The translations under genes were made by a program, and so were the position numbers. Positions 58,356-64,000 of a DNA stretch of 64,000 bases are shown here, piece by piece (positions within the stretch are counted from its first letter, which is position 1; every line of letters starts with the position of its first letter). The stretch lies in contig JNEU01001093.1 of NCBI GenBank assembly GCA_000697475.1, forward strand, positions 23,560 to 87,559, read 5' to 3'. Source of the DNA: Lichtheimia corymbifera B2541. Lineage: Eukaryota > Mucoromycota > Mucoromycetes > Mucorales > Lichtheimiaceae. The notes under the pieces are model-generated. The model was not told where the DNA came from. It worked only from the letters and a program-made list of their open reading frames with translations, and searched no databases.

Positions 58356-59452
58356 AGTAGAGGTGGAAAAGCATGAACGCTAGGTAACCAAAGAAACCCC
58401 ACATCGGCGTACAAAATCCTGGTGATGTGCAGTAACGTGACCCCTCCCTCCACCGAAACTTTGTTCCAATAAATCATGGCTATAAAGCTTTATTATCTCT
58501 ATAAACTTTATTGTGTTATCTGCTAGATTGATGTTTGCTCATGTGAACTAGAATGGCATAACTATGGTGTAGTTTTGTCGTAGATAATGGCAACAACTTG
58601 ATATGCGTCAGAATCATTTTCGTCAAAAGATCTCACTGTTGATGCGGTGCGGATGTTTTGGACTGTTGCTGAATGCTGTTCTAATCCCCACATTATCCCG
58701 CTTCCACTCGTTGGTGCAGTGTAGTGTTGCAATTACGTGGTTTTCATCACATGTTGCCTATATAGTAAGCTGCACATGAGAATGGTAGATCGAACGTGCA
58801 TGTATAAGTTGTAAACTTACCGTAATCAACTCAATGAAAATCAATCGACAGTCTTCAGGGAAGCCATTATGTCACCCGTGTGCGGGCTGTAGTTACCCAT
58901 GTTCATCTGCTACAGCCTTATAGATGCATCTCAGGAGGTAGCTACATCAAAAGGAATACGAGTATGTGGATCATTAAGCGAGAGCACTAGGTTTTACCTT
59001 ATTAAAGGAGCCAAAATCATAATGACAACATTAGTAAAGAGAGTACAGTAGGACGACAATGAGTCGCTAAATATCATCGCAAAGATTAGTACACAAAGGA
59101 TGATGTATCCACCATGGCATACTCACCTGAACTTGGGCTTTAAAGCTGCCGACAAACGGAGAGTGACATGTGTGATGGAAGAAAAGAGGCGTGTGGGAGT
59201 GAAATGATGGGCGACGACATCTTTTATTTGCATGATGCTGGGCGTGGGTATTTCTGTGGTTCACAACGAGTGATAAAATGTTTGTTGGAGATGGTGATGA
59301 GCTCATAGATTAATGGATCAACTTCACAAGTAAGGGTCTTGGTGTGATTGATTGTTCATGCATACATATATCAAGTCAATATAGGAAGGAACAACATTGT
59401 TTATTGAATAAGCTACGAGTGAATCACATAGAGGGTAACAGGGATCATTGTG
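58356..59452. other. Intergenic region
   Basis: About 1.1 kb upstream of the Tag1-like gene. Only short, unconvincing frames are present (one at 59067-59306, minus). No RNA gene or repeat is recognised. Confidence 0.45.
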
Positions 59453-59777
59453 TCATTGTATTCTTGGTTGCTGCCACCATAAACATCCTTCATCCACGAT
59501 TGTCAAATAGCCGCTGCATGCATTGACTCGATATTCCAAATATCCTTCATGGGTAAACAGCCTTTCCTCCAATCCATCATCATCCTCAGCTGTATCCATG
59601 TGATATGATCCATCACTCCTGCTGGCGGCATCCCAAGTAATATTCCAGGACTCATTATCGCTGCACTTGATCGCATCCATCCAGCATAGCCATTGCAATC
59701 CCAACATTGCTGCTGATATGCTTCCATTTCCATCCGGCTGTTGGTCTACCTCGCCCTTAGTAATTTTCCATCACATC
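59453..59777 (-). CDS. Possible small protein or exon (low confidence)
   Basis: On the minus strand the frame ending at 59453 is open from about 59777 and is protein-like: acidic centre (HMDTAEDDDGLEERLF), then EYRVNACSGYLTIVDEGC and LWWQQPRIQ at the end, with four Cys and five or more Trp. The first in-frame Met is at 59707 (84 residues). A second frame overlaps it and is also open, and no clear 5' exon was found, so the start is undecided. No family is recognised. Confidence 0.3.
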
Positions 59778-59929
59778 TCCATCGGATGAAGATTGCTTGT
59801 ATTGTGGTGTATATGATATACGATATGGCATCACCATATGTATTGGAACAAGTTGCTACGCGTAAATAAAGCTGCTTCTATATAGCGACTATCGTAATAA
59901 AGGCTGCAAGGCGAGTTGCTGCAAGTAAA

Positions 59930-60181
59930 GAACGCTGTTGGAGACACAGGGCAAAGGCAATGCTAATAGCAGCTGGCTGATGAATGCTGTTGCGTTTGGT
60001 CGCGGCAGGGCAGTGTACAAGAGCGCGTGTGTAGTAGTAGAGTGACAAGGCTGTGAACGCTGTTCGAGGCAATGGAGTACAGACATTGCTAATAGCAACT
60101 GCTGGAATGAATGCTGTTACGATTGGTTGTGGCAGAAAGGGAACGTGCAGTGTCAAGCACTGCGGGTGTTGCTGTAGTGGG
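59930..60181. repeat. Imperfect 125-bp tandem duplication
   Basis: Two diverged copies start at 59930 and 60055, both opening GAACGCTGTT and sharing the later landmarks TGCTAATAGCA and ATGAATGCTGTT. It is non-coding as far as seen and lies just before the terminal repeat cluster. Confidence 0.65.
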
Positions 60182-60434
60182 GAGTGCACGCCGTGGAGCT
60201 TGCCATTCAGTCGAAGACAATCAGATCAAGACAGTTGTAGCATTGACATGACGGGGTCAAGCAGGACAATCGTTCGCTGGTGGTAGTTGTACTTGAATGC
60301 ATAAACAGTTGAGAATGGGAAGAAGAGGGAAATAGGAAATAAAGTGGGAGTGGAAGAGGTGGAAATTAAATCTGTCAGCCAGTCAGACATATCCATATAC
60401 TCTGATATCAATGCATGATATTGGGATTGCCTGT

Positions 60435-61060
60435 CTCGAACCTCAAACTTTCACACAATATGCTCTAGGACATGCAGAACAACTTTGTATTAATAAAGAA
60501 CCCACACTTCATTTGAAAATTTCGAAAGGGAGAGCATAATGTGGGATTTACTATAACGGACGAAAATTGGGAAAGCGCCGGATTTATGAAAAAGTCAATT
60601 AGTATGTAGTTTCTTGGGATTCCCCATCTCGCACTTGAAACTTGGTCAGATGGTTCTCTGGGACATGCTGATCAACACCATTCATTTAAAAAACGTATGG
60701 TTCATAATGAACATTTTGAATGCGGGCCAGTCCAAATGTAGGATAAAGTAGGGTCGGCGCTCCTGTTCCCCGAGATTGGCCACCTCGAACCTGAAACTTT
60801 CACACAACACCCTTTCGACCACGCCGAGCAATTTCGTTCTCATAAAGACCCCAGAGTTCATTATGAAAATCTTGCATGTAGGAGAGACGATGAATGGATG
60901 ATAACATAAATAGGGTGTACGGCCGTGCGCGCCGATATTGCTGGTGGGGACGTCGAAACTTGGTCAGACGGTGGGCTTCGACATGCTGATCAATATCGTT
61001 CTCATAAAGCCTTTACACATCATTATGGAATTTGGAGAAACAGGCACCTTTATGTTTTTA
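60435..61060 (+). repeat. Four diverged direct copies of an 85-bp, codon-aligned motif
   Basis: Copies begin near 60440, 60632, 60785 and 60948. Each has the pattern (G/C)AAACT-(about 30 nt)-GAnCAA-(about 15 nt)-AAA-(about 12 nt)-CAT. In the same reading frame the first gives LEPQTFTQYALGHAEQL, the second LALETWSDGSLGHADQH, the third LEPETFTQHPFDHAEQF and the fourth DVETWSDGGLRHADQY. Differences fall mostly in third codon positions and conservative changes, and the same motif recurs, in both orientations, inside the palindromic array to the right. Intervening sequence has stops, so no intact gene is present. Confidence 0.7.
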
Positions 61061-62824
61061 CATATGCTGTAAGTGTGATGCTATATGGAGAGTGGTGTTT
61101 GTTCATTGTCAAGTAGCCTGACCCTGATAGAGCGGAAGATGCACAGGGGCATGCTTGTGCAACACATCTCATTTGCATGATACTTCACAATGAGCAAAGA
61201 CCACTTGTCATATAGCATAGTGCTTACAGCATATGTAAAACATAAAGGTGCCTGTATCTCTGAATCTTACAATGAAACTTGGGGTCGTTCATAGAACAAA
61301 ACTGCTCGTCGGGGTGAAGCGCACCTTGGGTGCAAGTTTCACGATCAGGCTCGCCACTCCTAGATTTCGCAATGTCACCACCAGCCAAAGTTGAAAAAAA
61401 AAATTCAAGAGGTCGACCCACGATTCACTTTGGCTGGTGGTGACATTGCGAAATCTAGGAGTGGCGAGCCTGATCGTGAAACTTGCACCCAAGGTGCGCT
61501 TCACCCCGACGAGCAACTTTGTTCTATGAAAGAGCCCACGTTTCATTGTAAATTTTAGAGATACAGCTATCTTTATGTTTTTTACATATGCTGTAACCAT
61601 AATGCTATATGGAGAGCGGTATTTGTTCATTAGGAAGTATCATGCAAATGAGCTGTGTTGCACAAAGAAGTCCGTCTGCATCTTCGGCTCTATCAGGGTC
61701 AGGCTACTTGACATTGAACAAAGACCACTTGTCATATAGCATTACGCGTACAGCATAGTAAAAACATAAAGATAGCTGTATCTCTAAATTTTACAATGAA
61801 ACGTGGGGTCTTTAATCGAACAAAGTTGCTCGTCGGGGCGAGGCGCACCTTGGGTGCAAGTTTCACGATCAGGCTCGGCGATCCTAGATTTCGCAATGTC
61901 ACCACCAGCCAAAGTAGATCGTGGGTCGACCTCTTGAATTTTTTTTTCGACTTTGGCTGGTGGTGACGTTGCGAAATCTAGGAGTGGCGAGTTTGATCGT
62001 GAAACTTGCACCCAAGGTGCGCTACACCCAGACGAGCAACTTCGTTCGATTGAAGACCCCACGTTTCATTGTAGAATTTTGAGTTATGGACATCTTTATG
62101 TTTTACATATGCTGTGACCATAATGCTATATGACAAGTGGTCTTGTTCAATGTCAAGTAGATAGACCGCGATAGAGCCGAAGATGCAGACGGACTTCTTT
62201 GTGCAACACAGCTCATTTGCATGATACTTGACTATGAACAAACACCACTTGTCATATAGCATCATGGTTTCAGTATATGTAAAAACGTAAAAGTGCCTGT
62301 ATCTAGGATGGGCAAGCTTAATCGTGAAACATGATTGACAAGGTGCGCTTCACCACGACGAGCAATATTGTTCTATGAAAGAGCCCATGTTTCATTGTAA
62401 AGTTTTGAGATAAATGCACTTTCTCAATTTTACATATGCTGTAAGCGTGATCCAATATGTTAGGTGGTCTTTGTTCATTGTGAAGTAGCTTGACCCTAAT
62501 AGAGCCGAAGATGCAGAGGCACGTGTTTGGGTAACATAGCTCATTTGCATGATCATTGACAATGAACAAACACCACTTGTCATATAGCATCACGTTTTCA
62601 GCATATGTAAAAACATATAAGCGCATTTATCTCTAAACTTTACAATGGAGCGTGGGGTCTTTCATAGAACAACATTGCTCGTCGTGGTGAAGCGCACCTT
62701 GTCAATCATGTTTCACGATTAAGCTTGCCCATCCTAGATACAGGCACTTTTACGTTTTTACATATACTGAAACCATGATGCTATATGACAAGTGGTGTTT
62801 GTTCATAGTCAAGTATCATGCAAA

Positions 62825-63062
62825 TGTTGTGAAGTGTCTGCAGGCCGGTCGTATTTCTAACACTCTCCTGCATTAGTGCCGTTAGAGAGTACGTGGCCTT
62901 TATAAGCCTGTTTGATGCAAACAATAAACAACAGCTCTTTCTTTCCTTTAAAAGCTCCTTTGCAATCGGCCATTTGCATCGTATACGTCGTTGCTTGTAT
63001 GAGTTGATGTTCAGCTCTTAGGGCGGTTGAGCATTACAGCAGTCCAAGATCGCATTACTACA
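62825..63062 (+). repeat. 5' LTR of the TRIM element
   Basis: 238 bp, TG...CA ends with a 3-bp terminal inverted TGT/ACA. It contains TTTATAAG as a possible TATA box and CAATAAACAA with the AATAAA polyadenylation signal about 30 nt later, giving a U3-R-U5 order in + orientation. Confidence 0.93.
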
Positions 63063-63401
63063 AACTGGTGGAGAAGCTGGGCGGCTGCCATACAAGCTTT
63101 GTTGGTCAGTGTAGCCCTATATCAAGACCAGGCCCTTGGAAGAAGGCGCTGTGAAGAATCGGACGAAGAATCAAGGAAAGGACAGGACGTCTAGATTCAA
63201 GGAATTTCTGATCAGCATCCCCTTCTATCATTTTTTGTTGTATTGCATGACGTTTCTCATCCCCAACCCCAGAAGTTCTGTATGTTTTGTACCCACATCC
63301 ATCATTCAACTGATGTGATGCTTATATGTATTATCTCGCTGTACTTCACTTTGTTTTGTGTCAAACAGCATGAGGACATTTGCTCTTTGACAAGGCCCTT
63401 T

Positions 63402-63639
63402 TGTTGTGAAGTGTCTGCAGGCCGGTCGTATTTCTAACACTCTCCTGCATTAGTGCCGTTAGAGAGTACGTGGCCTTTATAAGCCTGTTTGATGCAAACA
63501 ATAAACAACAGCTCTTTCTTTCCTTTAAAAGCTCCTTTGCAATCGGCCATTTGCATCGTATACGTCGTTGCTTGTATGAGTTGATGTTCAGCTCTTAGGG
63601 CGGTTGAGCATTACAGCAGTCCAAGATCGCATTACTACA
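63402..63639 (+). repeat. 3' LTR of the TRIM element
   Basis: Same 238-bp sequence as the 5' copy, no difference noticed. It is followed immediately by the CAAA target duplication and then by the continuing host repeat (TGAGCTGTGTTGCAC). Confidence 0.93.
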
Positions 63640-64000
63640 CAAATGAGCTGTGTTGCACAAAGAAGTCCGTCTGCATCTTCGGCTCTATCGCGGTCTATCT
63701 ACTTGACATTGAACAAGACCACTTGTCATATAGCATTACGCGTACAGCATAGTAAAAACATAAAGATAGCTGTATCTCTAAATTTTACAATGAAACGTGG
63801 GGTCTTTAATCGAACAAAGTTGCTCGTCGGGGCGAGGCGCACCTTGGGTGCAAGTTTCACGATCAGGCTCGGCGATCCTAGATTTCGCAACGTCACCACC
63901 AGCCAAAGTCGAAAAAAAAATTCAAGAGGTCGACCCACGATCTACTTTGGCTGGTGGTGACATTGCGAAATCTAGGATCGCCGAGCCTGATCGTGAAACT

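What the first reader, a model, noticed from the sequence alone, without database searches (positions are those of the whole stretch)
61050..64000. Evenly spaced palindromic array with a higher-order mirror axis
Five dyad centres occur every 260-263 nt with two alternating spacer types and alternating spacer orientation, and the whole region is again mirrored about 62,520 (after removing the TRIM insertion). Such regular head-to-head/tail-to-tail order is not typical of dispersed transposon insertions; it points to fold-back amplification, hairpin-mediated inverted duplication or a structured satellite. Arms of up to about 200 nt, and about 650 nt or more for the large palindrome, are expected to be unstable and to yield double-stranded RNA if transcribed, which would feed the RNAi machinery known in Mucorales. 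I do not recognise it as a described element.
Basis: partly seen in the sequence, partly recalled or inferred. Interest (0 to 1): 0.78.

Follow-up and report, generated by a model that had tools for sequence, protein, structure and literature searches.

The report
Dispersed fold-back repeat with palindromic arms
The regular palindromes are one copy of a common fold-back repeat scattered through this fungus-like genome; most copies examined are mirrored about a single axis, so the pattern mainly came with the element rather than being made at this spot.

Summary
Five dyad centres lie 260-262 nt apart (61,148 to 62,192), and the array is mirrored about 62,520 once the TRIM (62,825-63,639, TSD CAAA) is skipped. 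The window ends exactly at its contig's end, so the right arm is cut off. Half-units alternate. Of 34 arrays with the short 'g' module in both orientations, 32 show one convergent switch g>...<g; in the window it flanks 62,520. Copies range from a bare hairpin to 16 half-units, and some loci are single palindromes of 2.5-3.6 kb. I read it as a non-autonomous fold-back (long-TIR) repeat whose arms carry tandem units that are themselves palindromes. Exact inverted tracts (up to 497 nt; above any cross-locus match in 18 of 42 arrays) suggest arm-to-arm homogenisation. True ends, TSD and transposase were not found: it works like a Foldback/Tetris element, membership unproven. dsRNA/RNAi not testable.

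The parts
59366..60400 (+). Outer arm module T (probably non-coding; about 64-76% to other copies outside, 84-89% in its inner 415 nt)
   Evidence: 63 matches, 1049 first-look candidates of which 40 scored; homology to other array loci starts at about 59,300-59,400; no Pfam match in the three ORFs tried (two in T, one in Lrep)
60401..61036 (+). Arm module Lrep: about four diverged L-type repeats roughly 170 nt apart
   Evidence: 947 first-look candidates, 40 scored, 92-97% except C402:1-531 at 100%; 74-97% to the window among 34 fetched copies (the window's own included in the 34)
61037..62484 (+). Left arm of the array: alternating 261-nt half-units between B cores and S hairpins
61056..61240 (+). 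B core (dyad 61,148); repeated at about 61,580-61,762 and 62,102-62,284
61237..61582 (.). S hairpin with its two L arms (dyad 61,409.5); repeated around 61,932.5 and 63,926.5
   Evidence: MFE -275.5 kcal/mol, z -38.6
62301..62345 (+). g module (S hairpin and one L arm missing, period about 194 nt shorter), pointing to the axis
62485..62555 (.). Loop at the higher-order mirror axis (62,520)
62556..62824 (-). Right arm of the fold-back, part before the TRIM
62695..62739 (-). Mirror-image g module, pointing to the axis
62825..63639 (+). TRIM-like insertion: two identical 238-nt LTRs (62,825-63,062; 63,402-63,639), 339 nt between, TSD CAAA at 62,821-62,824 and 63,640-63,643
63644..64000 (-). Right arm continued, cut off by the contig end

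Best explanation
The region is one copy of a high-copy, apparently non-coding fold-back repeat. Its two arms are a long inverted repeat: T, Lrep, then tandem units, then the axis at 62,520, then the same in reverse. The tandem unit is itself a palindrome (B core, L arm, S hairpin, L arm), which produces the head-to-head/tail-to-tail order. Shown: dispersal, a conserved axis in most copies, variable unit number, exchange of end modules, local homogenisation in part of the arrays. Inferred: copies spread as non-autonomous DNA transposons moved in trans; unit number changes by unequal exchange or replication slippage; the arms are re-homogenised by gene conversion between arms (hairpin or cruciform pairing).
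For:: 373 and 454 matches from 40 scored candidates each (807 and 737 at first look); by my count of the listed rows 37 contigs and 63 in both together; 36 of 42 arrays hold g modules; 34 of 36 have a single switch (label shuffles: mean 15, maximum 24), two of these trivially (L020, L026 show one g only), so 32 of 34 with both orientations; neighbouring g pairs are convergent 35, divergent 1, same 24; single palindromes spanning 2.8 kb at 87% (L027), 2.5 kb at 84% (L041), 3.6 kb at 86% (L052) and 3.1 kb at 86% (L067); half-unit number 0 (L004) to 16 (L046, L067) over 54 loci; nearest relative of a unit in another array for 186 of 261, in the same array for 75 (shuffles mean 5.8, maximum 15); longest exact inverted tract exceeds the best cross-locus tract in 18 of 42 arrays (up to 497 nt), direct in 8 of 42, either in 20 of 42. 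Lrep arms within L027 93.5% and L052 96.4% alike, against 88.2% mean between loci.
Against: No element terminus and no target-site duplication was found: homology runs on outwards (L004 right flank against L008, 83% over about 1.1 kb). Ends are unlike (F one side, Lrep the other) at 9 of 20 loci with both flanks named. Not every array has one axis: L056 and L063 show more than one switch, L055 also has two axes if one search is used, and 6 of 42 arrays show no g module. In the median array the longest exact inverted tract (98 nt) does not exceed the best cross-locus tract (108 nt), and in 22 of 42 arrays no local tract does. Identity falls outwards (Lrep 92-97%, inner T 84-89%, outer T about 64-76%), opposite to what conserved transposase-binding ends would give. 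No transposase was linked to the family; the 9 MULE-domain matches in the genome were not tied to it.
Confidence: 0.66

Rival explanations
1. The palindromes were made at this place by fold-back or hairpin-mediated inverted duplication.
For:: exact inverted tracts of 246 nt (62,121-62,366 with 62,674-63,738, TRIM skipped) and 125 nt (61,859-61,983 with 63,876-64,000), longer than the best tract shared with any other fetched locus (102 nt; 84 nt in the array set); one search shows such an excess in 18 of 42 arrays.
Against:: the same order, axis and flanks recur at dozens of loci; 5 of the 7 window units scored have their nearest relative at another locus. Gene conversion between pre-existing arms also explains the exact tracts.
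Confidence: 0.12
2. A complex dispersed satellite: module blocks spread by ectopic recombination or circular DNA and never were a transposon.
For: Module order is circular (T-Lrep-array-F-X-T) with T copies in the same direction on both sides of the array at C257; no TSD or clean ends; mixed end types; long exact direct tracts in some arrays (L069 1212 nt at offset 519, L059 431, L064 419, L067 360).
Against: A single convergent switch in 32 of 34 arrays with both g orientations, a bare hairpin form without units (L004) and like ends at 11 of 20 loci (L035 has both Lrep in the same direction and L011 and L059 involve flank F5, so 8 without caveat) are expected of fold-back elements and not of a plain satellite.
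Confidence: 0.17
3. Assembly artefact at a contig end.
For: Window ends at the contig end; 22 of 51 array loci examined lie within 3 kb of a contig end against 7.4% expected; C402:1-531 is 100% identical to the window's Lrep while its T is 72%, which is suspicious.
Against: 29 of 51 loci lie further inside contigs, and several of these (L069-L072 for example) show the same architecture; the TRIM with 4-bp TSD joins left and right parts consistently.
Confidence: 0.05

Closest known systems
Tetris, a Foldback-type element of Drosophila virilis (PMC4079207; abstract and sections 10, 17, 19 read)
   Same: Non-coding, dispersed, long inverted arms, variable number of about 220-bp tandem repeats inside the arms, rearranged and modular copies, satellite-like extension of the inner repeats.
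   Different: The sections read describe Tetris repeats as tandem repeats and not as palindromes; Tetris has 8-10 bp TSDs and recognisable outer domains, which I did not find here. Sequence relationship not tested.
Foldback (FB) and Galileo elements (FB from recall; Galileo as cited in PMC4079207)
   Same: Long TIRs that carry internal tandem repeats.
   Different: Unit is a palindrome of two half-units here; superfamily unknown.
Bacterial BIMEs/REPs (starts of the abstracts of PMC2817692 and PMC3733652 seen in the listing)
   Same: Regularly spaced palindromes in alternating orientation, dispersed.
   Different: REPs are 20-40 bp bacterial units; here 261-nt half-units in a eukaryotic repeat. 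Analogy only.
Y-chromosome palindromes (start of the abstract of PMC3723533 seen in the listing)
   Same: Arms kept alike by gene conversion.
   Different: Large palindromes of one chromosome, not a dispersed repeat.

Membership tests
Foldback-type (long-TIR) DNA transposon | Long inverted arms making up most of the element | tested here: met
   palindromes of 2.5-3.6 kb at 84-87% in L027, L041, L052, L067 (4 of 8 loci compared with themselves; L071 2.0 kb at 80%; L004, L005, L007 give shorter or weaker arms)
Foldback-type (long-TIR) DNA transposon | Tandem repeats inside the arms, variable in number between copies | tested here: met
   0 to 16 half-units over 54 loci (many cut by contig ends or by the fetched stretch); frequent direct offsets of 326-330 and 519-523
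Foldback-type (long-TIR) DNA transposon | Dispersed, high copy | tested here: met
   (counts are first-look candidates; 40 scored per search)
Foldback-type (long-TIR) DNA transposon | Target-site duplication of constant length (8-10 bp in Tetris) | tested here: inconclusive
Foldback-type (long-TIR) DNA transposon | Conserved terminal sequence at both ends | tested here: inconclusive
   several alternative flanks (F1-F5, Lrep-T), none a proven terminus; 9 of 20 loci have unlike ends
Foldback-type (long-TIR) DNA transposon | Autonomous partner with the same ends | not tested
   MULE domains exist in the genome (9 matches) but their ends were not read
Satellite DNA | Head-to-tail arrays homogenised locally | tested here: inconclusive
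   75 of 261 units have their nearest relative in the same array, 186 elsewhere; direct exact tract above any cross-locus match in 8 of 42 arrays; most arrays are mirrored about an axis
microRNA precursor families | Match over the family's gathering score | tested here: not met
   best MIR8675 63.6 bits against 90.8 needed
TRIM (the insertion at 62,825-63,639) | Short LTRs beginning TG and ending CA, small middle, TSD | tested here: met
   238-nt identical LTRs TG...CA, 339-nt middle, 4-bp TSD; primer-binding site not tested

The most novel reading that the evidence does not exclude
A self-maintaining palindromic element: the fold-back symmetry is actively restored by arm-to-arm exchange, which keeps an axis in nearly every copy while swapping end modules and flipping hairpin loops, so that hundreds of long hairpins persist as recombination nodes and a potential genome-wide dsRNA source.
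Probability: 0.2. Interest if true: 0.7.

Novelty: new variant of a known kind. Interest (0 to 1): 0.45.

Why it matters
Long palindromes are generally thought to be unstable. A family that keeps many near-palindromes, most with one conserved axis and some with exact inverted tracts of hundreds of nucleotides, would be a natural system for measuring palindrome maintenance by gene conversion. It would also let one ask whether such hairpins feed RNA interference in an early-diverging fungus. Array loci are enriched at contig ends, so their real size is probably underestimated.

Tried and rejected
Chance: excluded by arm length and identity. Protein coding: three ORFs in T and Lrep give no Pfam match; longer ORFs beside arrays in L048, L033 and L069 read like nested retroelement gag/ORF1 pieces with CCHC motifs (my reading from recall, no Pfam result, searches failed on coordinates). 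Idea that the array is the 5' region of a LINE: rejected, because L069 shows a poly-A end followed by an L arm and L048 a join at an S centre, i.e. they look like ordinary nested insertions. tRNA: none in the window by ARAGORN with the bacterial code. miRNA families: below cut-off. Idea that T is a terminal direct repeat (LTR-like): open; the two T copies at C257 are 68% and 72-75% identical to the window's T and were not compared with each other. Presence elsewhere: the 21-nt S motif has no exact match in viral contigs or genome contigs, which are viral and prokaryotic; other fungi could not be searched. Searches for print: (listings only, except PMC4079207) showed no description of such a family in Mucorales among the rows listed; this does not show that none exists.

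Alternative end points: a join at profile positions 278/440 and starts at 877-880 were examined as termini and given up, since homology continues outwards. The window's T stops at about 59,366 where another dispersed repeat (about 58,922-59,366) abuts it.

Full report
What is there. The palindromes are real and regular: dyad centres at 61,148, 61,409.5, 61,671, 61,932.5 and 62,192.5, then the axis at 62,520, with arms of 65-271 nt at 82-94% (41 nt only at 62,192.5). Skipping the TRIM, the mirror about 62,520 runs from 61,859 to the window end at 90%. The window's last base is the last base of contig C366, so the right half is incomplete.

It is a dispersed repeat. One 523-nt period finds 373 matches from 40 scored of 807 first-look candidates; the axis region finds 454 from 40 of 737. 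The rows listed fall on 63 contigs by my count. The flanking modules are equally common at first look: T 1049 and Lrep 947 candidates, 40 scored each. Array copies inside contigs have the same architecture.

Anatomy. Along the window: T (59,366-60,400), Lrep (60,401-61,036, about four diverged L repeats), then B core, L arm, S hairpin, L arm, B core and so on. In the largest hit cluster of each of 54 loci the half-units alternate -+-+, apart from a doubled sign at one end of L047, L049 and L063. In a second unit type, g, the S hairpin and one L arm are missing, shortening the period from 523 to about 328 nt; the junction shares ATCT with both parents, which suggests a deletion (my reading of the sequence).

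One axis in most copies. The g modules are directional. In 34 of 36 arrays with g they read with a single switch; shuffling orientations within arrays gives a mean of 15 and never more than 24. Two of the 34 (L020, L026) hold one g only, so 32 of 34 arrays with both orientations. L056 and L063 have more than one switch; L055 also has two axes if one search is used, where the motif scan missed one g; 6 of 42 arrays show no g. The window reads g> B <g around 62,520. The first B loop after Lrep is in one orientation in 31 of 36 cases, while S loops are mixed (19 against 11), as if small hairpin loops flip but the overall symmetry stays. The higher-order mirror axis is therefore a property of the family and not a local accident.

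Size series. L004 is a bare hairpin without units, L003 and L008 hold two half-units, and L046 and L067 hold 16. Whole-locus palindromes reach 3.6 kb (L052, 86%) and 2.8 kb (L027, 87%). This is the design of Foldback-type elements with tandem repeats inside long TIRs, for which Tetris (PMC4079207; abstract and sections 10, 17 and 19 read) is the closest parallel found.

Ends. Of 54 loci, 20 have both flanks named: Lrep/Lrep 6 (L035 with both in the same direction), F/F 5 (L011 and L059 with flank F5, possibly an unrelated insertion), F/Lrep 9 (L061 with F5); the rest are cut by contig or stretch ends, carry a TRIM at the edge, or have an unnamed flank.

Dynamics. Most units (186 of 261) have their nearest relative in another array, so arrays seem to travel as wholes; 75 have it in the same array (51 inverted, 24 direct) against 5.8 expected from shuffles. 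The inverted share was not tested against the larger number of inverted pairs that alternation gives. In 18 of 42 arrays the longest exact inverted tract exceeds anything shared with the other 41, in 8 the longest direct one does, in 22 neither; medians are 98 inverted, 47 direct, 108 cross-locus. In the window the exact inverted tracts are 246 and 125 nt, with a 176-nt exact direct tract 61,721-61,896 = 63,715-63,890 between them. A simple reading is conversion of one S-hairpin stem by the other after the arms had been homogenised. Lrep arms of one copy are 93.5% (L027) and 96.4% (L052) alike, against a between-locus mean of 88.2%, maximum 96.4%: a consistent but small sample of two.

What is not shown. 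No terminus, no TSD, no transposase. Ends are unlike at 9 of 20 loci, and identity falls outwards from Lrep, which is unusual for transposase-bound ends. The membership claim is therefore weaker than the functional likeness. RNA folding of one S hairpin is extreme (z -38.6), but transcription and small RNAs were not testable.

Assembly. 22 of 51 array loci examined lie within 3 kb of a contig end, 7.4% expected (loci are mainly best hits, window left out). C402:1-531 is identical to the window's Lrep in the orientation expected of the missing right arm, but its T is 72%. Either the two contigs are halves of one copy, or contig ends were extended wrongly; only long reads can tell.

Mended on re-check: the single-axis count is now given with its two trivial cases and its exceptions, arm lengths are given per centre, the satellite row is inconclusive, and the 22 of 42 arrays without a local excess are stated.

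Noticed in passing
window 62,825-63,639; L003-L008: Six other TRIM LTR copies were fetched (of 13 other LTR places; 93.7-95.8% identical) and all six sit inside this fold-back family, in or beside its B and F modules. Four-bp TSDs (CCTC, CCAT, CCTC, TTTG, AGGG) can be read by eye at five of the six; at L007 none was read. In L006 the site is the same B-loop position as in the window, in the opposite orientation. The TRIM seems to favour this repeat.
   Followed up: partly
window 58,922-59,366: A separate dispersed repeat of about 445 nt (117 first-look candidates, 40 scored, 67-79% where listed; many matches begin near 58,922 and end near 59,366; possible TIR with ATGCAT and a TA site, by eye) abuts the outer end of T.
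   Followed up: partly
G000 C402:1-531: 100% identical to the window's Lrep (60,400-60,930), where the other copies listed are at most 97%; possibly the missing right arm of this copy or a contig-end artefact.
   Followed up: no
L069 3,405-5,222 (C402:124,404-126,221): 519-nt units with a 1212-nt exact direct match: recent direct tandem amplification, longer than in any other of the 42 arrays.
   Followed up: partly
L048 from about 2,722; L069 about 1,677-2,300: CCHC-type retroelement ORF1 pieces (my reading) joined to the S centre, and ending in poly-A before an L arm: nested LINE-like insertions in the arrays.
   Followed up: partly
L072 1,690-2,150 and L032 900-1,000: Another hairpin-forming dispersed repeat lies inside or beside the arrays (GGAGCAGGCGCATC module; by eye).
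   Followed up: no
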